Assembly (NCBI RefSeq): GCF_000003815.2 | Contig: NC_049993.1 | Coordinates: 10,115,505-10,179,504 of the forward strand | Length of the DNA: 64,000 nucleotides | Direction: 5' to 3' | Source of the DNA: Branchiostoma floridae | Taxonomy: Eukaryota > Chordata > Leptocardii > Amphioxiformes > Branchiostomatidae | In this document: positions 1 through 29,308 of the stretch, in pieces | Layout: each line of letters begins with the position of its first letter | How positions within the stretch are numbered: position 1 is the stretch's first letter | Made by a program: the position numbers and the translations under genes | Notes under the pieces: generated by a model | Databases searched by the model: none | Seen by the model: the letters and a program-made list of their open reading frames with translations, nothing else | What the model was told of the DNA's origin: nothing

Positions 1-752
1 CATTTCGGACACTTTTCCAAAATCCGCATTTTGGGTCGCGGTTAGGGGGACTTAGCTAAGAACGGGAATAACTCGGCAACAAAAAGAGCTATCTGAAAAC
101 GGATTGCAGCGTTCAACTCCCCACCAAGAGACCTTTCCAATGATACCATAGTTTGCCTATTTCGGACACTTTAAAAAAATCCACATTTTTGTTCGCGGTT
201 AGGGAGACTTAGCTAAGAACGGGAATAACTCGACAACAAAAAGAGCTATCTGAAAACGGATTGCAGCGTTCAACTCCCCACCAAGAGACCTTTCCAATGA
301 AACAATAGTTTGCCTATTTCGGACACTTTTCCAAAATCCACATTTTGGGTCGCGGTTAGGGGGACTTAGCTAAGAACGGGAATAACTCGACAACAAAAAG
401 AGCTATCTGAAAACGGATTGCAGCGTTCAACTCCCCACCAAGAGACCTTTCCAATGATACCATAGCTTGCCTATTTCAGACACTTTGAAAAATTCCACAT
501 TTTGGGTTACTGTAAGCGGTGCTTAACTATAAACGCGAATAACTCGACAACAAAAAGAGCTATCTGAAAACGGATTGCAGCGTTCAACTCCCCACTAAGA
601 GACCTTTCCAATGATACCATAGTTTGCCTATTTCGGACACTTTAAAAAAATCCACATTTTGGTCCGCGGTTAGGGGGACTTAGCTAAGAACGGGAATAAC
701 TCGACAACAAAAAGAGCTATCTGAAAAGGGATTGCAGCGTTCAACTCCCCAC

Positions 753-1016
753 NNNNNNNNNNNNNNNNNNNNNNNNNNNNNNNNNNNNNNNNNNNNNNNN
801 NNNNNNNNNNNNNNNNNNNNNNNNNNNNNNNNNNNNNNNNNNNNNNNNNNNNNNNNNNNNNNNNNNNNNNNNNNNNNNNNNNNNNNNNNNNNNNNNNNNN
901 NNNNNNNNNNNNNNNNNNNNNNNNNNNNNNNNNNNNNNNNNNNNNNNNNNNNNNNNNNNNNNNNNNNNNNNNNNNNNNNNNNNNNNNNNNNNNNNNNNNN
1001 NNNNNNNNNNNNNNNN
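753..1016. other. assembly gap (264 N) inside the satellite
   Basis: This is a run of 264 unknown bases inside the tandem array. Its length is not a round number, so it may be an estimated gap size. Confidence 0.99.
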
Positions 1017-2185
1017 GACAACAAAAAGAGCGAGCGGAAAACGGAAGGCAGCGTGCAACACCCCACTTTGAGACCTTTCCAATGATACCATAGCTTGCAT
1101 ATTTCAGACACTTTGAAAAATTCCACATTTTGGGTTACTAAATCTCGGCAACAAAAAGAGCTATCTGAAAACGGATTGCAGCGTTCAACTCCCCACAAAG
1201 AGACCTTTCCAATGATACCATAGTTTGCCTATTTCAGACACTTTTAAAAAATCCACATTTTGGGTTACTGTAATCGGTGCTTAACTTTAAACGCGAATAA
1301 CTCGGCAACAAAAAGAGCTATCTGAAAACGGATTGCAGCGTTCAACTCCCCACCAAGAGACCTTTCCAATGATACCAAAGTTTGCCTATTTCGGACACTT
1401 TTAAAAAATCCACATTTTGTGTCGCGGTTAGGGGGACTTAGCTAAGAACGGGAATAACTCGACAACAAAAAGAGCTATCTGAAAACGGATTGCAGCGTTC
1501 AACTTGCCACCAAGAGACATTTCCAATGATACCATAGTTTGCCTATTTCAGACACTTTTAAAAAATCCACATTTTGGGTTACTGTAATCGGTGCTTAACT
1601 TTAAACGCGAATAACTCGGCAACTTTAAAAAATCCACATTTTGTGTCGCGGTTAGGGGGACTTAGCTAAGAACGGGAATAACTCGACAACAAAAAGAGCT
1701 ATCTGAAAACGGATTGCAGCGTTCAACTTGCCACCAAGAGACATTTCCAATGATATCATAGTTTGCCTATTTCGGACACTTTTCCAAAATCCACATTTTG
1801 GGTAGCGGTTAGGGGGACTTAGCTAAGAACGGGAATAAGTCACAACAAAGAGAGCTATCTGAAAACGGATTGCAGCGTTCAACTCCCCACCAAGAGACCT
1901 TTCCAATAATACCATAGTTTCGCTATTTCGGACACTTTTAAAAAATCCACATTTTGGGTCGCGGTTAGGGGGACTTAGCTTAGAACGGGAATAACTCGAC
2001 AACAAAAAGAGCTATCTGAAAACGGATTGCAGCGTTCAACTCCCCACCAAGAGACCTTTCCAATGATATCATAGTTTGCCTATTTCGGACACTTTTCAAA
2101 AATCCACATTTTTGGGTCGCGGTTAGGGGGACTTAGCTAAAAAACGGAAAAACTCGCACAAAAAAAGAGCTTTCAAAAAACGGAT

Positions 2186-2285
2186 NNNNNNNNNNNNNNN
2201 NNNNNNNNNNNNNNNNNNNNNNNNNNNNNNNNNNNNNNNNNNNNNNNNNNNNNNNNNNNNNNNNNNNNNNNNNNNNNNNNNNNNN
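2186..2285. other. assembly gap (100 N) inside the satellite
   Basis: Exactly 100 N, the usual placeholder for a gap of unknown size. The monomer subtype changes across it, so satellite sequence is probably missing. Confidence 0.99.
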
Positions 2286-4175
2286 AGATGTGGTTAACTT
2301 TAAACGTTAATAACTCGACAACAAAAAAAGCTATCCGAAAACGGATTGCAGCGTTCAACTCCCCACCAAGAGACCATTCCAATGATACCATAGTTTGCCT
2401 ATTTCGGACACTTTTCAAAAATCCACATTTTGGGTCGCGGTTAGGGGGACATAGCTATAAACGGGAATAACTCGGTAACAAAAAGAGCTATCTAAAAACG
2501 GATTGCAGCGTTCAACTCCCCACCAAGAGACCTTTTTAATGATACCATAGTTTGCCTATTTCGGACACTTTTCAAAAATCCACATTTTGGGTCGCGGTTA
2601 GGGGGACTTAGCTATAAACGGGAATAACTCGACAACAAAAAGAGCTACCAAAAACGGAATGCAGCGTTCAACTCCCCACCAAGAGACCTTTCCAAAGATA
2701 CCCTAATTTGCCTATTTCAGACACTTTTCAAAAATCCTAATTCTAAGTTGAGGTTAGATGTGGCTAACTTTAAACGGTAATAACTCGACAACAAAAAAAG
2801 CTATCTGAAAACGGATTGCAGCGTTCAACTCCCCACCAAGAGACCTTTCCAATGATACCATAGTTTGCCTATTTCGGACACTTTTCAAAAATCCACATTT
2901 TTGGTCGCGGTTAGGGGGACTTAACTTTAAACGGGAATAACTCGACACCAAAAAGAGCTTCCAAAAACGGATTGCAGCGTTCAACTGCACACCAAGAGAC
3001 CTTTCCAATAATACCATAGTTTGCCTATTTCGGACACTTTTCAAAAATCCTAATTTTAAGTTGAGGTTAGATGTGGTTAACTTTAAACGTTAATAACTCG
3101 ACAACAAAAAAAGCTATCTGAAAACGGATTGCAGCGTTCAACTCCCCACCATGAGACCTTTCCAATGATACCATAGTTTGCCTATTTCGGACACTTTTCA
3201 AAAATCCTAATTTTAAGTTGAGGTTAGATGTGGTTTACTTGAGACGTTAATAACTCAACAACAAAAAGAGCTATCTGAAAACGGATTGCAGCGTTGAGCG
3301 CCCCACCAAGAGACCTTTCCAATGATACCATAGTTTGCCTATTTCGGACACTTTTAAAAAATCGCCATTTTCGGTTACTGTAATCGGTGCTTAACTTTAA
3401 ACGCGAATAACTCGGCAACAAAAAGAGTTATCTGAAAACGGATTGCAGCGTTCAACTCCCCACCAAGAGACCTTCCAATGATACCATAGTTTGCCTATTT
3501 CGGACACTTTTACAAAATCGCTCATTGGGGGTTACTGTAATCGGTGCTTAACTTTAAACGCGAATAACTCGGCAACAAAAAGAGCTATCTAAAAACGGAT
3601 TGCAGCGTTCAACTCCCCACCAAGAGACCTTTCCAATGATATCATAGTTTGCCTTTTTCGGACACTTTTAAAAAATCCACATTTTGGGTCGCGGTTAGGG
3701 GGACTTAGCTAAGAACGGGAATAACTCGACAACAAAAAGAGCTATCTGAAAACGGATTGGAGCGTTCATTTCTCCACCAAGAGACATTTCCAATGATACC
3801 ATAGTTTACCTTTTTCGGACACTTTTCCAAAATCCACATTTTGGGTCTCGGTTAGGGGGACTTAGCTAAGAACGGGAATAACTCGACAACAAAAAGAGCT
3901 ATCTGAAAACGGATTGCAGCGTTCAATTCCCCACCAAGAGACCTTTCCAATGATACCATAGTTTACCTATTTCGGACACTTTTAAAAATTCCACATTTTG
4001 GGTCGCGGTTAGGGGGACTTAGCTAAGAACGGGAATAACTCGACAAAAAAAGAGCTATCTGAAAACGGATTGCAGCGTTCAACTCCCCACCAAGAGACCT
4101 TTCCAATGATACCATAGTTTGCCTATTTCGGACACTTTTACAAAATCCACATTTTGGGTCGCGGTTAGGGGGACT

Positions 4176-4875
4176 TCAGTGCTGAATATGGCTTCAGCAC
4201 TGGATTTCCAGTGTTGAATGCTCTCTCACCACTGGAAACGCCTGCTTCAGCACTGGAAACCGAGTGCTGACGAACATTCAGCACTGGAAACCAAGTGCTG
4301 ACAAGTTTTCGGTGGTTTTATTCGGATGTTATAGCAAAGGACCAGGCGTTATGACACCATATACACCTCGGGGCGGGTCATTAACCCTTAATACATATCT
4401 GCCTACCTTCAAGTGAACCATCGAATTTACGTCTAGTGCCGCTCTCAGCACTGGGAGATTCCAGTGCTGGAAAGACGTCAGCACTGGTTCGAACATCGTT
4501 CCAGTGCTGGAAAGACGTCAGCACTCGTTTTCCAGTGCTGAAGATTTCACAGCACTGGTTTTCCAGTGCTGAAGTGTCCCCGAGCACTGGTAAATCCAGT
4601 GCTGAAGGTGAGGTTTTTGTATATCAGCACTCGGTTCCAGTGCTGACGGCGAATTCAGCACTGGGCAATCAGTGCTGAATGACATTGACCTGGCCCGGCC
4701 CCGCTGTCCCCGGATTTCAGCACTGGTAACCGAGTGCTGACGGCAGTTCAGCACTAGAAAACCAGTGCTGTGCGAGTTTCAGCTCTGGAACAAGGCCGAT
4801 CAGCACTGGAAAACGAGTGCTGAAATAATTTAGACCGTTTAGACAATTGAATCAGCACTGGAACACCAGTGCGGA
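4176..4875. repeat. array of about 14 short interrupted palindromes
   Basis: Directly after the satellite, the motif TCAGCACTGG followed by a loop of a few bases and CCAGTGCTGA recurs. Hairpins sit near 4194-4217, 4246-4270, 4278-4301, 4445-4469, 4479-4510, 4519-4542, 4550-4572, 4583-4605, 4624-4646, 4654-4679, 4716-4740, 4747-4770, 4800-4823 and 4852-4873, plus a weak one near 4778. Starts are often 31-34 bp apart, and one step of 62 equals two units. Loops and spacers differ while stems are conserved; several stem changes are one-armed (cgagtgctga). A non-array insert occupies 4302-4444. No coding potential is seen. Confidence 0.9.
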
Positions 4876-5447
4876 AGGCGAGGTTTTCGTAGACTTGCGC
4901 TAGGAATGTCAGAAACATATCATTTTCTAATCTGGCAAATATGTGACCTTTGCCATGTTTTGGCCTGTAGTTGAACGTTGAATAAGAACCCAGCGTATGG
5001 ACTGACACATTATTAATGTGTCATTAAGACAAGGTGAAATCCTGGTGCTATTTTAAATCTTCTGGCTGCAGCTCATTAAACCCGGGGGTTGACCTTCCAC
5101 TTTTTGAACAACATGCTGTCCTATACACCAGAGAGGTCTAATTTCTAGTGGTTCTGATAATTCAGCATTATGCAGAGCTCTTGTTTTTGCACAGTTCACA
5201 GACATCGGAAATACGAGATAATAATGCAAATATGCTGGAAAGTGGTTGTAACGTCATGTCATTTGCATGAATGTTTTGTACTCCAGAATATTTTCAATTT
5301 TGGGACTATATATATAGTGCAGCTTTAACCATGTATTTATCGCATGCATTGGGAAGTTAAAATTGGTAGTCCCTTCATGGTCTATGCAACGCCAGGTCAA
5401 CTAACGTTAATACATCCCGCTCAAGCGCCCCCCTCCCCCATCCAACC
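4876..5447. other. no recognisable feature
   Basis: This is unique-looking AT-rich sequence between the hairpin array and the kelch-gene fragment. I see no open frame, splice-flanked exon or clear repeat apart from the C-rich run at about 5425-5445, which matches the intron side of the kelch exon-1 duplicate. Confidence 0.5.
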
Positions 5448-5553
5448 TTATTCCTTCCACCTCCAGAACCACGTCAGTCAGCTCTGCCTGCTCCCTCAGT
5501 TTGTTTAGCTCATCCAGAACACTGTAAGAGTGATCTTCGTGCATGACGTTCAT
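5448..5553 (-). pseudogene. duplicate of kelch-like exon 1 (BTB start), partial
   Basis: On the minus strand an ATG at 5551-5553 opens a frame whose end (LREQAELTDVVLEVEG) is nearly identical to exon 1 of the kelch-like gene at 15687-15793. Upstream flanking sequence (about 5630-5660) also matches the region upstream of that exon (about 15890-15930), so this is a duplicated genomic segment, not a processed copy. The splice donor is degraded (gttgga in place of gtgagg). Only one copy of the exon tail is present, without the tandem array seen at 15.1-15.7 kb. No matching exon 2 follows. It is best read as a relic or the edge of a paralogue lost in assembly. Confidence 0.75.
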
Positions 5554-6949: not shown

Positions 6950-7148
6950 CCCGCCAATTCATGATGCGCCTTATATGCAGTGTTTCTGAGCTGAACATTT
7001 CATTCACCGAGAGACCGAGAAGCGCTGTCTGCCTTGGCACGTCTGATTGCCTCAGGTTTAACCGGGTGGTACTACAGCCCTCCTTCCTCCAGCTGTCACT
7101 GCTCCAGCTCCGGTCCCTGCTTGACAGCGATGATCTGATGACCACCTC
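6950..7148 (+). pseudogene. duplicate of kelch-like BACK exon and its upstream intron, truncated by gap
   Basis: On the plus strand an acceptor (ctcag, ending 7055) is followed by about 93 bases encoding the start of a BACK domain, with FLQLSLLQLRSLLDSDDLMT as in exon 4 of the kelch-like gene at 12239-12829. Homology extends into the intron upstream (ctgaacatttcattcac and about 100 bases around it). The orientation is opposite to the exon-1 duplicate at 5448-5553, and the fragment runs into the 100-N gap. It lies within the span of the LINE. This implies an inversion or a wrong scaffold join. Confidence 0.8.
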
Positions 7149-10332: not shown

Positions 10333-13300
10333 TCAGTCGTTATCAGAATTTTCTTCATCGCTGTCGTCTTGGTCCGAGAGATCTTGCTGACTGTCATCAG
10401 TGGTTCCACTTCCGAAAGAATCCTCATCAGAGGTTATCTCCAGGCCCTCGTACATGCTTGTATCCCCCGGACTCCTCTGGATCATCCTTGCTGCCAGGCA
10501 GTCTACGCTATTCCCAGATTTGAAGTGTGCCAGGGGAGGAATCAGCCTGCGCTTAAAGGCCTTGTCTGTAATAAACAGCCAGGAGTCTGCATCTGTCTGG
10601 TACTGGTGGACATTAATCCAGCGCTGCGTCGGTCGTCCAAATATGCGGTCATGTTCGATGTGTGCAGTGATGAGATACAGGCTTCCGTCGTGCTTCATCA
10701 GGGTTGAAGCGAGGAAGGCAAAAGTCTCGCCGTTCCCAGACCGCTTCCATACGCCGTCGGCGGGGTCGTACATTTCTACACAAATGGGGTCAGAAGAAAC
10801 AGCCGATGGTTGATGACTGTCCATACAGAAAATGCGCCCCTGACACGTGACAACCCGAGGACGCACTGGTGGAAACAACATGTCCGCTATCTTACTCCAC
10901 TTGTTCTCTGGGGTACTGAAAGCTGTAGCAACCCTTCCTTACTTATAACATAGATGCTGTCATCCAGAGTCACAGTACAGAATTGTAGGAATCCGCTCAT
11001 GGGGTGAGGGATAGGTGGCATGGACGTCCACTCATCAGTGCTGGGGTCGTATCTCTCTGCTGTTCCCTTGGTGTTATCACCACCAATAGCATAGATGTAG
11101 CCCTTCAGATGCACCAGACCACACCTGGGGAAGAATAGGAAACAATAGACCAAATCAAACCACACACACATGTACTGCTTTTGTCATAGATACACAAGGG
11201 TGCCTGAGTATTCATACAATCCTTACAGAAAACATCAGTCCTTACAGAAAACATACCACCCTTACAGAAAACATGCGATCCTTACGGAATTTTAACTCCA
11301 CTACTAAAAAAAGGAGGAAACAAACAATTCTTACAGAAAACAATTATGATCCTTGCTAATTCCACGTGATTAAAGAAATTAGTAAGGATTATGTTTCTTA
11401 TAAGTGGATGGAATATTTTCCATAACGATCATCTTGTTTTTCTGTAAGGGTCATAATTATGTTTCTTAGTAGTGGATGGCATGAACTTCATAAGGATCAT
11501 ACATTTCTTAGTAGCGGACCGTTTAGATTCCGTAATGATTGTTTGTTCTCTGTAAGGATCATATGTTTTCTGTAAGGATTGTAATATGAATGCTTACTGC
11601 AGGCATCCCTGATACAGGGAATTTTGCTCACAAACTGTGCACGTCTGTAAACAACAGATTGGTTCAAATGACATTCCCAAAATTCTGCCAGTTCTTACAT
11701 CCTTCCTCGTCCCCCACCATCCAGTTATTATAAAATGAGTTTGAATTGGACAGTTCTTGAAGCTTTTCATCATACTGCTGTCAGTCGTTTTGTTACTTGT
11801 GTTAAATCTGGCTGGACAGACAACTGCATTTTCAAGCTAAGCTGCAAATGCTGCAAGTTTGCTCCTGCAATTATTGTAGTACTAATTAAGCCCTCACCTC
11901 TTCCTGATACAGGGAAAGTTATTCTAATGTCCATTCCAGCTCTATGAATTTGTTTTTAAAAAATTCCAATGTTCCCTGCATCTCTATAAACTTGAGAATT
12001 GCCTATCATACATTATAAATTAAATCACATGAAATATTGTGCACATATAGTTTTGCATCTTTCCTACAACTGTTTAATTTTTTTTCAATTTCAGGGCCTT
12101 TCTCATTTATCCAGATACAACCTGAAATAAAGTATGCACCTGAACTTTGGCAACAACCTTTTGGATTTAAAAATGTATAGTTTAAAAAGTGCGTACTTAA
12201 ATTGAGAAAACATTGTAATGTGCAAGAGAAAGACGTACCCAACTCTGGCTGAAATCATCTCACACCTTGGTTCCCAGGTGTGTAAGAGTTGGTTGTACTG
12301 GTAGAATGCCTTCTGCCTGCTAACCTTCTTGCTGCCCCTAACACCCCCTGCCAGGTACAGATCATCAGGAGTGGATGTCAGAGAGAAACTGCCCAGGTTC
12401 CTGGGCATATTGATTACATCCAGCCCACCTGTGGAGGGGTTGTAGCAAGGAGCAGACCACTGGGAATAAGAATCATCCATTAAATCATCTTGTACCTCTA
12501 TTGGCACTTCTGGTACAATCTGCATCTCCGTTCGCACCTGACCTAGTCGCTGGGTTGTGCTTTTGCTGAAAACTAACTCGCCGTCTGTCGATGGGCGCCT
12601 ACTCTTGATTTCGGCATGCTTTTCTGAGCTAATAAGCGAACGGCGGAATGATTTGCACAGAGCAGGAAGGTGTTTCAAGCGCTCATCTTGGTTGAATTCG
12701 ATCCATCTTAGAGCGGCTACAACGACGTCGTCTTCTGAGGTGGTCATCAGATCATCGCTGTCAAGCAGGGACCGGAGCTGGAGCAGTGACAGCTGGAGGA
12801 AGGAGGGCTGTAGTGCCACCTGGTTGAACCTGGGGCAGTTAGATGTGCAATGGTTTAATGCACTGCTCGATCTCACTGTGAATGAAATGTTCAGACTATG
12901 TACAATGTATATGATGCACAAAATGAACTGGTGGGTGTACTACTAAGTATCAGCTACGAAAGAACAAGAAATAGTCATACGTTCAAATACCATATTTATC
13001 AAAGTGAAAATAGAATTGTAGTGTTCTAAATCAATTTTCCTTAGAACTATCATAGAGAGGGTCTCATTGCCACTAAAAACTGTAGGAGCAATTCCTTGAA
13101 GTAGATTATTAAACTTTAATTTAAAGAGCATTTCCATTGCTAATGTTAGGAGTTATAGGTCATTCGGTGTGTTAAAAAAATACATGTAACCAGCTGCTGC
13201 TGTGCCGCATGCTTGCGAAGCTGGTGTCTTACATCAAAGGGTGTGTGGGTATGTGGTTATACTGGCTACATTGATATAGATATAGAATTGATTTTCTTTC

Positions 13301-15793
13301 TAAATTAGTGTTGTTTTGTCAAATGTCAAAATTTAATTTTGTACATTTATCCATCATCATATACAGGGCACTTCATTCCTTGAGTATTAAGCAGGCCAAA
13401 AATATTCTAACTGGATACTATGTGACTCCACTACCTAGCCAAAATATTGCTATTGTCTGCAGGTTTTCCCAAGGTAGGTCAGGAATCAGCATGATGGTAA
13501 AATTTGGCCCTAAAATTTCCAGACTTCTATGTGGGGATATTTTTTAGAGCACGAACATGTTCCATCTGATGTGACCGCGCACGAATCGAACAGAACAGGC
13601 GTTCTATTTGGGGTCATCCGCAGTCACCCGGAGATTGTTACAGTAAACACGCAGAAAATGCCCTTGTTTTCCTGGGTGCCGTGCGTCAGAAGTAAAACTA
13701 ACAATTTTACAAATATAAACATATATTTGGCAAGCTTAGTTTTGCTGCCGCTTAGATTTGGATTTTTGTCAAATTTAGGACCAATCTAAATATGGTATTT
13801 GTTTTTGGGTCCACCAAACACCCTTTCTAAATCAACCAACCAGGCACATTTCAGAAAACATTGAGACAAAACTGTGCAGCACACTTATAGGTCAAGATTT
13901 GACGTGTACACACTGCTAGTTTTCGTTTAATATCTAGGAGGCACATGCGAGGGGTTACTTTTCTAACTATCATGATCTGTTGGAAGATGTTACAGTTACT
14001 GTCAGGTTCCCCGGAGCGCGCGCGGGGAGCCCCGGTAACCCGATACCCTACGTTCGAATGGAAACTTTGGGGCCAAATTTGACCATCATGCAGGAAAGAC
14101 AACATTTTTCTTTAAGTAGGTCTAACTACCATAGGACTGACCTGGATGCAATGTACTTCTCACTGTTCTCCATTAGTTGACCACAGTCCCCCAGCATGTC
14201 AGCATACATCAGGGCATCCACACAGTTTGACATGTCCAGATGATCTGCCATGTATTTTGCTGCCCTCTGGCATACAAAGTCCACCTAGAAGCAGAAAATA
14301 TGGTTAAAACCTACCATTCTTCACTTATCAGTGTACTACACAAAGGCTTCTTTACATTCGTAGAACTTTTAACAAAATCAACTCAAAGTCAAAGTAAACA
14401 GCCTAAAGATGGCATCTCTAAAATATATCACAAAAGCTGCATGGACCTGGGCACTGTAGCAGCACTGTAGCAGCATTTCAGAAACTTAACAAGCGTCAAG
14501 CTTAGGCAAGCTTGCATAACTGAGTCCAGGAACAAAGCAAGAGTTATAAAGGCTGCCTGGAAAGAGTACGAAAAAAGAATCCGTAACGTTACCTATCAAC
14601 CCTATCAACAGAAACACAACATTTTTCCAGGTCTCACCTGTAATAGTCTGGCTGCAGACATCACAGCCTGGACCTGGTCTGGCTCTGTCTGAAGGTAGCC
14701 GGTGTAGGCGTAGTCCAGAATGGTTGCCATGGCTACCCCACTCACATCCTGAATGAGGACCCTTTCCTGTTTGGCCTCCTTGTAGCCACTGGTGAACATG
14801 GTACGGAAGTAGCGACTGCACGATGCCAGGACAGCACGATGGCAGGGAAAACTGTGGAGGAAGATATATTTTTGTTTGATAACAAGCCCACGGGTAAACT
14901 CACTTCATAGGCCCTGTGAGAATGTAGTCATGTGCCACCAACTGTGCCCCACTGTTAACAAACAGGAACGGACTAGCATGTCTGCACTCTCGGACTTAAC
15001 TCAGCTTATCTCAAAATGGTAAGCTCGTGCAGTTTTCACCAATATCTATATCTATATTTGCAAAAATAATTATGACCTCCGGCCCACCTCACCTCCTCCC
15101 TACACCTCCAGAACCACGTCAGTCAGCTCTGCCCCCTCCCCCACCTCCAGAACCACGTCAGTCAGCTCTGCCCCCCTCCCCCATCTCACCTCCTCCCTTC
15201 CACCTCCAGAACCACGTCAGTCAGCTCTGCCCCCCTCCCCTATCTCACCTCCTCCCTTCCACCTCCAGAACCACGTCAGTCAGCTCTGCCCCCCTCCCCA
15301 CCTCACCTCTTCCCTTCCACCTCCAGAACCACGTCAGTCAGCTCTGCCCCCCTCCCCCACCTCACCTCCTCCCTTCCACCTCACCTCCTCCCTTCCACCT
15401 CCAGAACCACGTCAGTCAGCTCTGCCCCCCTCCCCCATCTCACCTCCTCCCTTACCCTTCCACCTCCAGAACCACGTCAGTCAGCTCTGCCCCCCTCCCC
15501 AACTCACCCCCTCCCTTCCACCTCCAGAACCACGTCAGTCAGCTCTGCCCCCCTCCCCACCTCACCTCCTCCCTTCCACCTCCAGAACCACGTCAATCAG
15601 CTCTGCCCCCCTCCCCACCTCACCTCCTCCCTTCTACCTCCAGAACCACGTCAGTCAGCTCTGCCCCCCTCCCCTCCCCACCTCACCTCTTCCCTTCCAC
15701 CTCCAGAACCACGTCAGTCAGCTCTGCCTGCTCCCGCATTTCGTTCAGTTCTGTCAGAACATTGTTACCGTGCTGTTCGTGCGTTGCGTACAT
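10333..15793 (-). CDS. kelch-like protein (BTB-BACK-kelch), five exons
   Basis: Coding exons on the minus strand: 15687-15793, 14638-14851, 14142-14284, 12239-12829 and 10333-11124. All introns are GT-AG and phases agree. BTB spans exons 1-2 (TDVVLEVEG, FPCHRAVLASCSRYF, ILDYAYTGYL), BACK spans exons 3-4 (LLQLRSLLDSDDLMT), and kelch repeats run from exon 4 (YNPSTGG, YLAGGV, WEPRCEM) through exon 5 (YIYAIGG, YDPSTDEWTSMP). A Ser/Asp/Glu-rich tail ends the protein. Family members usually act as substrate adaptors for CUL3 ubiquitin ligases; the substrate is unknown. Exon 5 contains two apparent one-base insertions, at 10910-10913 (run of four) and 10930-10931. Discounting both gives 614 aa, a normal length for the family. 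They may be assembly errors or real damage. The start ATG was chosen because it opens the conserved N-terminus and is shared with the duplicate at 5.5 kb. Confidence 0.88.
11211..11592. repeat. long imperfect inverted repeat (foldback element) in kelch-like intron
   Basis: The left edge (ttcatacaatccttacag) and right edge (ctgtaaggattgtaatatga) are complementary. The interior is made of repeated units of the form gatccttacagaaaaca on the left and their complement on the right, so nearly the whole 380 bp could fold on itself. The centre lies near 11370. It sits in the intron between exons 5 and 4. Confidence 0.75.
13185..13295. repeat. dispersed copy of the 'cagctgctgc...gcgaagctggt' repeat
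   Basis: The sequence from aaccagctgctgctgtgccg through the phrase ending ttatactggctac resembles the tandem sub-repeats at 42656-42800 and 44884-45085. It is a single diverged unit within a kelch-like intron. Confidence 0.6.
13489..14091. mobile_element. non-autonomous element with 32-bp terminal inverted repeats
   Basis: Bases 13489-13520 and 14060-14091 are inverted repeats (both begin gcatgatggt when read inward) matching at 29 of 32 positions. The roughly 600-bp interior has no transposase. It lies in the intron between exons 4 and 3 of the kelch-like gene. Target-site duplication was not resolved. Confidence 0.65.
15079..15730 (-). repeat. 58-bp minisatellite made of exon-1 tail plus splice donor
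   Basis: The phrase gaaccacgtcagtcagctct (plus strand) starts at 15111, 15150, 15209, 15268, 15326, 15404, 15469, 15527, 15585, 15643 and 15706. Most steps are 58-59 bp. The last copy is the genuine end of exon 1 of the kelch-like gene; the other ten lie in intron 1. Read on the minus strand, each unit holds codons for AELTDVVLEVEG and, in nearly all units, a strong donor (gtgagg, gtgaga or gtgagt), then a G-rich spacer. One copy (near 15585) has a substitution (cgtcaatcag). Confidence 0.95.
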
Positions 15794-17935: not shown

Positions 17936-18141
17936 CTCAAATGCTATTGACCTCAATATAGATGAATGCAAAGATATGAGGGTCTGCTGCTCTTTTCCAT
18001 AAGGCTTAGGCAGCCTATTTTCATTTCCCGCAATTCGTAGGGAAAACCATCTTAGCTACATAATTTGTAGCGAGGAGACCAAATTTAATGTCCGCACTAC
18101 AATTGTTTAATGTCAACAATTTTCCTTCTGTCTGTTAGACA

Positions 18142-19917
18142 ATGGACGACGGTCAGTCAAAGGACGATAGTCACACCACGGAAGTCAGTGAGACAGTGGA
18201 TGAGAAAGTGGACGGTGGACTAGAGTGTGACGACTCTGACTGGTATCCAGCCACTTTCCTGCAGCGGTTACTGGACTTCAGGTCGGAGGGTCACCTGTTG
18301 GATGTAACGCTGTGTGCGGAAGGGAAGGAGATCCCCTGTCACCGCCTGGTCCTGTCTGCCTTTGCTGAGTACTTCCATGCCATGTTCCGCGGAGGCCACA
18401 GTGAGAGTAAGAAGGACAAGATAGAGATAGGAGGGGTGAGTGCAGAGGCACTGCAACAGCTGGTGGACTATGCCTACACATCCAAAATCACCGTCACCAC
18501 TGATAATGTCCAGTCACTGTATGAGGCTGCTAATATGCTGCAGGTAAAGTCTGTTGAGGACAGGTGTGAACAGTTTCTCACAGACAAGTTGAGTCCTGAG
18601 ACATGTTTGGAAAGCTGGGTACTGGCAGACAAGGTGTCATGCAAACGATTGTTAGAGAAGGCAAAATTCCATGCTTTAAAAAATTTTGAACAAGTCTGCA
18701 TGACCGAGGAGTTCCTTGAGCTACCTGTAGACATTCTAAAGGCATATCTCTCAGATAGTGGCCTTCATACTAAGAAAGAAGAACAAGTGTTGGAAGTGAT
18801 CATGCGTTGGGCAGGACATGATCTTCAACAGAGACAAATACATGTCAAGGCGCTCCTTGAGTGTGTTTGTTTCTCACATGTGGACCAAGACTATCTGAAG
18901 GACATTCTGAAGAAAGACAGAACATTGTCAAGCATTCCTGGAGTCAAGGAACTGATACAGGATCAGTCTATGCACGCTAGGCCTCGTCATATCCATCAAG
19001 AGGAAATTCTTGTTCTAGGTGGCATCAAACATGTCATGCAACCAGAGGAAGAGGATAACAAGGACATATACAGACTTAGCCTCAACTGTGATTGTGTTGA
19101 CATTTCTCCATTGCCAGAATTTCTTTTGGAAAGCGACGGATATGAAGCTTGTGTTGTTAACAATGATGTTGTTATAACAGTGGCTCAGTCATTTTCTGAA
19201 TGCAAAGTATGGCAGTGTTCACTTAATTCTTTTACTCAGCTGGGAAATCTTGTTAGGAAAGAGAGACAATTCAATAGTGTTGTAGCTTTACACGGACAGG
19301 TGTATGTTCTTGGCGGTATTACCTTACCCAATTGGGAACCAGTATATGATGTTGAGGTGTACAGTGAAACGACTGATAGTTGGAATCTGGTAGCACCATT
19401 GTCATTACAAGGGGGAGTAAGGGACTTTGGCATAACCACCTGTTCTAAAAAGATCTTCGTATTCGGTGGTAAAACTGGACAGTGTACTCAGTTGGACTAC
19501 TGTCATATCACAGATGCTGTTCAATGTTATGACCCTTCTTTAAATGTGTGGACTTTTGTTTCATCACTACCAAATCCAATGCATGGTGTGATGGCATGTA
19601 CAGTTAACTGTAAGATATATTTGGTTGGAGGACAGTTACCACATGTTCTGTGCTATGATCCTCAGCAAGAATGCTATGTGAGAATGACTGGCCGACTAGC
19701 CCCATGGTGTGCATGTGGTGCCACTGTGTGTGGCTCTGACGTCTACATCATTGGTGGCTGTGACAGAAAGTATTCACTCAGTGAAACTGATGATGATGAT
19801 TATGACTCCCATACTGCAGTCCAATGTTATAATGTGCCGAGTGATACCATGATCTTACTGAAGAAATTCCCACACCCAATCTCTGAGCACGTCAGTGTAA
19901 CAATACCAAAACTATAA
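18142..19917 (+). CDS. kelch-like protein, single coding exon
   Basis: A 591-residue frame with the full kelch-like order. An acidic N-terminus comes first, then BTB at about residues 40-150 (LLDVTLCAEG, IPCHRLVLSAF, LVDYAYTSKI), BACK at about 155-260 (ESWVLADKVSCKRLLEKA, FLELPVDILKAYLSD, VLEVIMRWAGHD), and kelch repeats at about 290-591 (VYVLGGI, IFVFGGK, IYLVGGQ, VYIIGGC). Length is normal for the family. The likely role is CUL3 substrate adaptor in the cytoplasm; the substrate is unknown. A splice acceptor (tctgttag, ending 18138) stands three bases before the ATG, which suggests a 5' untranslated exon upstream and argues against a recent retrocopy. It differs from the neighbouring kelch-like gene in sequence and exon structure, so the pair is not a recent tandem duplicate. 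Confidence 0.93.
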   Translation: MDDGQSKDDSHTTEVSETVDEKVDGGLECDDSDWYPATFLQRLLDFRSEGHLLDVTLCAEGKEIPCHRLVLSAFAEYFHAMFRGGHSESKKDKIEIGGVSAEALQQLVDYAYTSKITVTTDNVQSLYEAANMLQVKSVEDRCEQFLTDKLSPETCLESWVLADKVSCKRLLEKAKFHALKNFEQVCMTEEFLELPVDILKAYLSDSGLHTKKEEQVLEVIMRWAGHDLQQRQIHVKALLECVCFSHVDQDYLKDILKKDRTLSSIPGVKELIQDQSMHARPRHIHQEEILVLGGIKHVMQPEEEDNKDIYRLSLNCDCVDISPLPEFLLESDGYEACVVNNDVVITVAQSFSECKVWQCSLNSFTQLGNLVRKERQFNSVVALHGQVYVLGGITLPNWEPVYDVEVYSETTDSWNLVAPLSLQGGVRDFGITTCSKKIFVFGGKTGQCTQLDYCHITDAVQCYDPSLNVWTFVSSLPNPMHGVMACTVNCKIYLVGGQLPHVLCYDPQQECYVRMTGRLAPWCACGATVCGSDVYIIGGCDRKYSLSETDDDDYDSHTAVQCYNVPSDTMILLKKFPHPISEHVSVTIPKL

Positions 19918-27813: not shown

Positions 27814-29308
27814 ATGACTTGTGGACAGCGAATGAGAAGCGAATTTCGCCTGAAATCGTTTGGGCTGACGTACAACGACCTGCACGTGTTCACCAGAACG
27901 CCGGTGAGCTTACTAGTTTTGCCGAGATATGGTTTGAGAGTGACCATAGGGAATACATGTACTTGTAGGCCATTTAGTTTGTTTCCTTTAGCATGTGTTA
28001 GCCGTTCTGATATGCAACGAACTATTCAAACAGTTATGAAACTTCACTGAGAAGGTGAACTGAACTGAACTGAACTGAGAGAGATAGAAAGAGAGAGAGA
28101 GACCATGACGTAGGTCAAACACACACAGTCACACAAGGACACACAGAGGCACACACTGACACACACAGGTACACGTGGACACAGGTAGGCACACACTGAC
28201 ACATAGGCACACGTAGACACACAGACACACGCGGACACACACAGGCACACAAAGATACACACACAGACACACACGGACACATACCAGCACACGCGGACAC
28301 ACACACAGACAAAAGCACACACGTGACACACACGGACACACACAGACACACGTAAAATTTTTAGGTCAACTTGGATTCTTTCCCACGCTCTTATTTCTTT
28401 GTTTTCAGTGGCTGAGTAACCAAAACCAGCTACCATTCTTGCTGTATAGACTTGCGGTATGCTTGTACCATGTCGTTATTTACGTCGGCCTACGCGGAGC
28501 CCTGGGCGGTTTCCAACCGCTGAATCTGATATACCTGACAGACTGGGCCTACATTAGTCTCACACTCCACACCGCACTGAACGCGTTACTCTGCCTGGCT
28601 GACTACTTCAACTCTCGTTCGCAGCGTGGAGCAACATCTGACGAGTCGTCTGACGACGTCATGGATACGGGACCTACCATTTCACCCACAACCACAGGTA
28701 GTAACGCAGCAGCACAAGAGAGCATCGGCCAGGACTCCAGCCAACCCCTACCTATACCATGGTTCTACAAACTCAGCTGGGTGTTGTACAACGTCGCCTT
28801 TAGCGAAGGGATACACATCACGATTTTGTTCTGGGCACTGATAGGAGGTGACAGTAGCGATGTTAGCATCCTTATGCACGCCATTAATTCTGTCACCATA
28901 GTGATAGACGTAATGGTTAGTGGTTTCCCATGTCGACTGCTGCATTTTGTTTACCCTTTGACCTTTGGGGCTGTGTACATTCTCTTTACTGTCGTCTACT
29001 GGGCTGCAGGTGGGAGGGGAGAGGATAACCTTCCCTTTATATACCCCTACCTTGACTATGGAGGGAATCCTGTTCTAGCCGTCATTGTAGCTGTACTGAG
29101 TGTTGTAGTAGCAATGCCATTATGTCACTGTGTCGTCTTCGCTCTCGCTCTGGCTCGCGAGAGTTTGGTGCGGTTATTGCAGTGGCGTCCTCCAGGTGAT
29201 AGTCAGAATGTTAACGTTACTGGTTCTGTTGATACTGGCCTTGAAAACCATGCAAACTCCACGTGTCGTTCAGGAACCCTGACTTCCATAGAATGCACTG
29301 CACTTTAA
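27814..29308 (+). CDS. rolling-stone-like multi-pass membrane protein, two exons
   Basis: Coding exons 27814-27903 and 28409-29308 give 329 aa. The intron is GT (gtgagc) to AG (gttttcag) in phase 0. Exon 1 encodes [20 protein letters not shown], typical of the family N-terminus. Exon 2 continues with [14 protein letters not shown], then a hydrophilic Ser/Thr-rich loop (about residues 100-145). Four or more further membrane segments follow, including [39 protein letters not shown] and [19 protein letters not shown]. The family is named for Drosophila rolling stone, needed for myoblast fusion; a role in fusion here is only inference. The tail after about residue 275 is hydrophilic. The ATG was chosen because it gives the conserved N-terminus in frame. 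Confidence 0.85.
28120..28352. repeat. CA-rich degenerate microsatellite in intron
   Basis: Repeats of acacacac, with interspersed g and t, fill most of the only intron of the rolling-stone-like gene. The cysteine- and valine-rich frames on the minus strand are by-products. Confidence 0.95.

What the first reader, a model, noticed from the sequence alone, without database searches (positions are those of the whole stretch)
15079..15793. Intron 1 begins with ~10 tandem copies of the exon end and its splice donor
The last ~60 bp of kelch-like exon 1, including the 5' splice site and a G-rich spacer, is amplified to eleven units. Nearly all intronic units keep a strong donor (gtgagg/gtgaga/gtgagt) and the codons for AELTDVVLEVEG. 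Reading past the true donor meets TGA at once (aggtga), so use of any decoy donor would truncate the protein to under 40 aa. The duplicate of this exon at 5.5 kb has only one unit, so the array grew in this copy. The array may tune splicing through donor competition and G-run enhancers, or simply be tolerated; that part is inference.
Basis: partly seen in the sequence, partly recalled or inferred. Interest (0 to 1): 0.82.

Follow-up and report, generated by a model that had tools for sequence, protein, structure and literature searches.

The report
Lancelet gene with repeated splice donors
In this lancelet-like genome the end of a kelch-like gene's first exon, together with its splice signal, has been copied ten more times into the following intron; such "mirage" repeats are already known from lancelets, but here they recur in sister genes at the same boundary and offer a natural test of how cells choose between near-identical splice sites.

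Summary
On the minus strand, exon 1 (15793-15687) of a kelch-like (KLHL) gene is followed by 10 intronic copies of its last 38 nt plus donor plus a G-rich block; 9 of 10 keep a strong donor. Exon 1 joins exon 2 in frame from the 15686 donor; each of 12 downstream donors tested gives a 36-aa stop. The kind is known: amphioxus "mirage" minisatellites (PMC3087553, PMC3902484; passages). This genome's class III alcohol dehydrogenase gene carries such arrays too. New is the family context: of 29 close exon-2 copies, 28 were paired with an exon 1; 25 of 28 carry a G-rich block near the donor, and 4 of 28 have arrays at this boundary, against 0 of 126 other exon boundaries. C6 arrays use another unit but the same junction. 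Decoy donors are no better conserved than exon copies. Against a working gene: the last coding exon is frame-shifted relative to 7 of 7 comparable paralogous copies. Best reading: a tolerated mirage, first donor used. A copy-number splicing rheostat is unsupported. No RNA data were available.

The parts
15687..15793 (-). Coding exon 1 of the KLHL gene (MYATHEQHGNNVLTELNEMREQAELTDVVLEVEGK + AG), 107 nt, phase-2 end
   Evidence: join to exon 2 open; joined 107-aa product matches Pfam BTB, E 1.2e-26
15663..15725 (-). Unit 0 of the array: the real exon end, true donor (first intron base 15686) and its G-rich block
15131..15662 (-). Nine intronic units (1-9); strong donors at 15623, 15565, 15507, 15455, 15443, 15384, 15365, 15306, 15248, 15189; unit 9 has lost its strong donor
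15080..15130 (-). Last, degenerate unit 10 with donor at 15092; lower limit approximate
14852..15686 (-). Intron 1 (835 nt); array occupies its first ~600 nt; acceptor TCTTCCTCCACAG
14638..14851 (-). Exon 2 (214 nt), core of the BTB domain
14141..14284 (-). Exon 3 (predicted; no Pfam match by itself)
   Evidence: paralogs conserve it
12244..12828 (-). Exon 4 coding core (BACK and following)
10932..11123 (-). First part of the last coding exon (kelch)
10441..10917 (-). Second part of the last coding exon, in another frame: 14 nt from the first part here, 12, 15 or 24 nt in 7 of 7 paralogous copies with both parts, so the frame is broken in this assembly (one sub-threshold Kelch_1 match)
5447..5553 (-). 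Single-unit exon 1 copy with the same G-rich block but weak donor; orphan within the window

Best explanation
This is a lancelet 'mirage' minisatellite of the donor type in a KLHL gene. Shown: the last 38 nt of exon 1, the donor and the adjoining G-rich intron block were tandemly duplicated to 11 units; the same boundary carries arrays with another unit in three C6 genes; the G-rich block is conserved in the subfamily. Inferred: duplication started between short repeats (GGC/GGGCA at the exon side and at the end of the G-block) and the G-rich, purine-rich array then grew by slippage or unequal exchange. The array is spliced out as part of intron 1 from the first, cap-proximal donor, and is mostly neutral. 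Any use of a tested decoy donor gives a 36-codon frame whose stop lies at least 59 nt before the next junction, so such transcripts should be removed by nonsense-mediated decay.
For: Array anatomy. In-frame join only from the first of 13 donors tested. Published class with the same description: tandem duplicates of exon-intron boundaries in amphioxus Adh3, globins, PGBD5 and TnC, with length variation and apparently normal splicing (PMC3087553 passages; PMC3902484 passages). The same genome's class III ADH gene has an exon-end+donor array of about 10 x 33 bp and acceptor-side arrays. Arrays in 4 of 28 paired genes at this boundary vs 0 of 126 other boundaries (Fisher p 0.0009 by gene; 0.028 if the three C6 genes are one event). 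Decoy donors not specially conserved. G-richness: 237 of 388 high G4Hunter 25-nt windows of the 64 kb lie in the array.
Against: No RNA was examined, so use of the 15686 donor is inferred from frame only. Most decoys score about as high as the true donor (10.3; strong decoys 8.9-10.3) and carry their own G-block, so strict use of the first site needs a positional rule; in duplicated-donor experiments (recalled, not read) the intron-proximal site often wins, which would predict aberrant splicing here. The last coding exon is frame-shifted in this assembly, so the gene may not make a full protein and 'the first donor is kept because the protein is needed' may not apply. The classical G4 pattern was found once in the array, so a quadruplex role in growth is weak. 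Species is inferred; no tool names it.
Confidence: 0.78

Rival explanations
1. Relaxed array in a decaying gene: the KLHL copy is becoming a pseudogene, so the array could grow without any cost and tells nothing about splice-site choice.
For: The last coding exon is frame-shifted relative to 7 of 7 paralogous copies with both parts; one C6 array gene (1566548) has a one-base insertion and early stop in its native exon-1 unit (sequence).
Against: Exons 1 and 2 join openly with a full BTB match and exons 2-4 lie in open frames; the frame break could be an assembly error; the C6 genes at 1565796 and 1579857 keep the last exon open past the join; the ADH gene, an essential type of enzyme (recalled), has the same kind of arrays.
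Confidence: 0.25
2. Splicing rheostat: the decoy donors compete for U1 and the 3' splice site, and the lost fraction of transcripts (36-aa frame, decay) sets the gene's output in proportion to unit number, so array length acts as a heritable expression dial.
For: Nine of 10 intronic units keep strong donors; all 12 decoys tested truncate at 36 aa; G triplets next to donors are described as a U1-linked enhancer and are over-represented at tandem donors that are both used (PMC1779574 passages), and most units repeat that block.
Against: Donor positions are not more conserved than exon-copy positions; published mirages are reported not to give aberrant mRNA; no array at this boundary in 24 of 28 genes; the gene may be broken.
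Confidence: 0.06
3. Assembly artefact: the true locus has one or few units and the count is an assembly stutter.
Against: No N inside this array; units carry private substitutions, a 6-nt insertion, a 19-nt internal duplication and a deletion, which stutter would not produce; comparable arrays occur in three other genes and in ADH. The exact count may still be wrong or differ between alleles.
Confidence: 0.05
4. Intron-birth or exon-birth intermediate: a copy becomes a real exon or new intron, as modelled for amphioxus globins.
For: Model published for mirages (PMC3087553).
Against: Units carry a donor and G-block but a purine-rich acceptor side (GGGGGGCAG) without a pyrimidine tract (sequence); no sign of exon use, but no RNA was examined.
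Confidence: 0.04
5. Independent plus-strand coding array (proline-rich frames open on the other strand).
For: Three plus-strand frames of 267-299 codons are open across the array.
Against: All three frames are open at once, as expected from C-rich repeats lacking stops; I did not run a homology search on these frames.
Confidence: 0.01

Closest known systems
Adh3 'mirage' minisatellites of Branchiostoma (Canestro et al. 2002; not held, known here through passages of PMC3087553 and PMC3902484)
   Same: Tandem copies of an exon-intron boundary inside an intron, short units, splice signals retained; a donor-type array of about 10 x 33 bp and acceptor-side arrays are seen in the class III ADH gene of this same genome.
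   Different: Different gene and unit (58 nt); here the unit includes a subfamily-conserved G-rich block, and paralogous genes have arrays at the same boundary.
BflGb6 / BflGb9 globin mirages (PMC3087553, passages seen)
   Same: Exon-intron boundary duplicates, copy number differing between haplotypes, RT-PCR taken as consistent with normal splicing.
   Different: Units of 150-160 bp; BflGb6 copies the acceptor side, BflGb9 contains a duplicate of the 3' boundary of exon 2.
Lancelet PGBD5 60-bp and 108-bp splice-site repeats (PMC3902484, passages seen)
   Same: 60-bp repeats next to a splice site; 2 vs 7 copies in two assemblies.
   Different: No paralogous series; copies there described as imperfect.
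G-triplet intronic splicing enhancers (McCullough and Berget; as cited in PMC1779574, passages seen)
   Same: G runs just inside the donor.
   Different: Function not tested here; longer G runs (GGGGGAGGGGGG).

Membership tests
Amphioxus mirage minisatellite | Tandem repeat unit spans an exon-intron boundary | tested here: met
   Unit = 38 nt of exon 1 + donor + G-block
Amphioxus mirage minisatellite | Array adjoins the real boundary and lies in the intron of a coding gene | tested here: met
   Exon 1/exon 2 join in frame, BTB match; but the last coding exon is frame-shifted in this assembly
Amphioxus mirage minisatellite | Many copies keep splice signals | tested here: met
   9 of 10 intronic units
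Amphioxus mirage minisatellite | Genome is a cephalochordate's | tested here: inconclusive
   No tool names the species; the class III ADH gene here bears boundary arrays as described for amphioxus Adh3; 513.4 Mb in 431 contigs
Amphioxus mirage minisatellite | Length polymorphism between alleles or cells | not testable with these tools
   One assembly only
Amphioxus mirage minisatellite | Does not disturb splicing | not testable with these tools
   No RNA data
G-triplet intronic splicing enhancer | G runs close to the donor, conserved beyond the intron background | tested here: met
   25 of 28 genes; run of >=4 G in 23 of 23 introns at nt 1-60 vs 3 of 23 at nt 101-160; shared words >=10 nt in 162 of 227 pairs without body homology vs 0 of 227 at nt 67-120
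G-triplet intronic splicing enhancer | Enhances use of the adjoining donor | not testable with these tools
   needs a minigene assay

The most novel reading that the evidence does not exclude
The boundary 'exon end + donor + conserved G-rich enhancer' of this KLHL subfamily is a recurrent amplification hotspot, because the enhancer that marks the donor also supplies the microhomology and G-rich DNA that seed tandem duplication; the resulting stack of complete donor modules acts as a copy-number dial on productive splicing through decay of decoy-spliced transcripts.
Probability: 0.06. Interest if true: 0.78.

Novelty: new member of a known kind. Interest (0 to 1): 0.4.

Why it matters
It places a little-studied amphioxus oddity in a testable series: one gene subfamily, one boundary, 1, 3, 6, 6 and 11 units, in one genome. 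If only the first of a dozen near-identical donor modules is used, position (cap or exon start) must dominate donor strength, which can be measured directly. I saw no description of the family-wide G-block next to this donor or of mirages in kelch-like genes in the listings, but only aimed at kelch genes and none at the G-block, so this is no proof of absence from print.

Tried and rejected
Selection on decoy donors: tested, not supported. Special synonymous constraint on the exon end: codon heterozygosity averages about 0.14 over the eight residues listed at positions 23-34 of exon 1 (my average; 0.23 over all listed residues of exon 1) vs 0.18 in exon 2, so the exon end does not stand out; rejected. 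Shared ancestry of the C15 and C6 arrays: non-array intron tails of C15, C6a and C6b show no cross-match at E<=1, and unit spacers differ; independent growth of C15 and C6 favoured, gene conversion not excluded. The blast matches between C15 and C6 intron bodies I take to be the arrays themselves, since the tails do not match. Rfam scan of the window: no family at gathering threshold. Other exon boundaries as mirages in the family: first counted as 0 of 144; that count included ends between two stretches that one search shows to be one exon, so I recounted 0 of 126. Rows set aside: the relic unit C6:1581231 was left out of the 29 exon-1 ends; exon 2 at C15:10072547 has no exon 1 within 12 kb (nearest is the 5.5 kb copy, 48 kb away), so 28 of 29 were counted. 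One pairing (C6:1566548 with exon 2 at 1575119) spans 8.6 kb. G-block: two G runs, or one run of at least 9 G; C6:1565796 (interrupted by one C), C2:28299107 and C6:1214149 count as misses. Ascertainment: exon-1 ends were found with queries that include the G-block; the denominator comes from an exon-2 protein search that scored 150 of 468 candidates. Papers: ten answered searches.

Full report
What is there. On the minus strand at 15793 a coding exon begins (MYATHEQHGNN...), ending at 15687 in ...GAAGGGAAGAG|GTGAGG. It joins in frame to an exon at 14851-14638 behind a good pyrimidine tract, and the joined 107 aa match the BTB domain of Pfam (E 1.2e-26). Further coding stretches follow at about 14.2, 12.5 and 11.1-10.4 kb; those at 12.5 and 11.0 kb match BACK and kelch, the one at 14.2 kb matches no Pfam family alone but is conserved in paralogs. 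So this is a kelch-like gene of five coding exons.

A broken last exon. The two stretches at 11123-10932 and 10917-10441 lie in different frames, 14 nt apart. In 7 of 7 paralogous copies where both parts were found they are 12, 15 or 24 nt apart, and in 6 of these the frame of the first part stays open for 235-283 aa (the seventh runs to the end of the stretch read), against 78 aa here. In this assembly the window gene is therefore frame-shifted near its C-terminal part. It may be a pseudogene, a truncated gene or an assembly error; I cannot tell.

The array. The first ~600 nt of the 835-nt intron 1 consist of ten further copies of the last 38 nt of exon 1, the donor, and a G-rich block ending GGGGGGC. 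With the real exon end this makes eleven units. Units differ by private substitutions, a 6-nt insertion (unit 4), a 19-nt internal duplication (unit 5) and a deletion that removed the strong donor (unit 9). Units 4 and 8 are identical apart from the insertion, and their spacer is that of the single-unit 5.5 kb copy (0.92 identity, against 0.83 for the unit at the real exon), so they may keep the older spacer (inference).

Consequences. Of thirteen donors tested, only 15686 gives an open frame; the other twelve give the same 36-aa product. The stop ends at nt 111 of the frame and the nearest tested decoy junction lies at nt 170, so decay of those transcripts is expected (inference from the usual 50-55 nt rule, recalled). 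Donor scores use a human-like matrix recalled from memory; on it, six decoys equal the true donor at 10.3 and the other strong ones score 8.9-9.9.

Known kind. [quoted passage not shown] Passages of PMC3902484 describe 60- and 108-bp repeats at lancelet PGBD5 splice sites, 2 vs 7 and 3 vs 6 copies in two assemblies, and say that Adh and TnC mirages do not generate aberrant mRNA. The original Adh paper was not held. As a positive control I looked at the class III ADH gene of the window's own genome (best place found with TIGR02818, below that family's cut-off; exons are scored singly): it has an array of about 10 x 33 bp made of the exon end ...AAAATCAG|GTGAG (7 exact copies of the 20-mer searched), and acceptor-side arrays of 59 bp x 6.9 and of 26-29 bp units. 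This makes it very likely that the genome is a lancelet's and that the KLHL array is the same kind of thing. That the species is Branchiostoma floridae is my inference from genome and contig sizes and memory.

Family context. The array as a query finds 30 places in the genome. An exon-2 protein search finds 29 close copies at 79-100% identity, the window gene included, and nothing else above 56% among the 150 candidates scored. Exon 1 was found upstream for 28 of the 29. Four of these 28 have arrays: the window gene (11 units) and three on C6 (3, 6 and 6 units by the count). The C6 unit is about 67 nt with its own intron start (GTAAGTTAGATCGGT), but the junction GGGGGGC^AGAGCTG is the same. 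Non-array intron tails do not match between C15 and the two C6 genes compared. None of 126 other exon boundaries in the 21 loci lies in an array; Fisher p is 0.0009 by gene, 0.028 if the C6 genes count once. One C6 gene (1566548) has a one-base insertion in its native unit that brings a stop, read from the sequence.

The G-block. In 23 paired introns a run of four or more G lies within the first 60 nt in 23 of 23, against 3 of 23 at nt 101-160 and 0 of 21 near the acceptor. Among 227 intron pairs without body homology, 162 share a word of 10 nt or more at nt 7-60 and 0 at nt 67-120. By a stricter pattern (two G runs, or one of at least 9) it is 25 of 28. G triplets in intron flanks of donors are described as enhancers acting through U1 (PMC1779574 passages). 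So most array units are full donor modules. Exon ends read GGGCA|GAGCTG in many paralogs and some introns read GGGGGGCAGA after the block: direct repeats that could seed duplication here (inference).

Function. Decoy donors are not better kept than exon-copy sequence (1 of 63 vs 5 of 333, p=1.0), so nothing shows that they are used or selected. I favour a tolerated array, with the first donor used. Open point: in duplicated-donor experiments (recalled; only titles in a reference list seen) proximity to the acceptor often favours the last donor, which here would destroy the protein. How the first is chosen is the interesting question, if the gene is alive at all.

Limits. No RNA, no second individual, one assembly with gaps. 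Exon-1 searches used queries containing the G-block; the exon-2 count does not. The number of units may differ in the living animal.

Noticed in passing
L062 (G000:C6:27451500-27459000), 2528-3877: Class III ADH gene with three arrays at exon boundaries: 26-29 bp acceptor-side units, 59 bp x 6.9 acceptor+exon start, 33 bp x 9.8 exon end+donor.
   Followed up: partly
10918-10931: Frame break in the last coding exon of the window's spliced KLHL gene relative to 7 of 7 comparable paralogous copies.
   Followed up: partly
L009 4545-4926 (G000:C6:1566544-1566925): C6 gene whose native exon-1 unit has a one-base insertion and an early stop that its intronic copies lack (sequence).
   Followed up: partly
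L018, L019, L020 intron 1 starts: After the G-block these C2 paralogs read CAAAGCTGGCTG / CAGAACTGGCTGG, resembling a decayed start of a second unit.
   Followed up: no
6950-7148 and 12737-12935: Part of the BACK exon (83% identical over 199 bp) lies inverted at 7 kb, ending at an N gap within a LINE-like stretch (endonuclease match at 7.7-9.3 kb); possibly a join or misplaced contig.
   Followed up: partly
1-4176: Satellite of 157-bp units (TRF rows of 4.8, 3.1 and 16.3 copies, with N gaps).
   Followed up: no
11213-11311 and 11504-11583: 20-bp tandem units present as an inverted pair within the KLHL intron upstream of the last coding exon.
   Followed up: no
18139-19917: Intron-less BTB-BACK-kelch gene on the plus strand, neighbour of the spliced KLHL gene.
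   Followed up: no
28217-29308: Frame matching Pfam 'Rost' (rolling stone).
   Followed up: no
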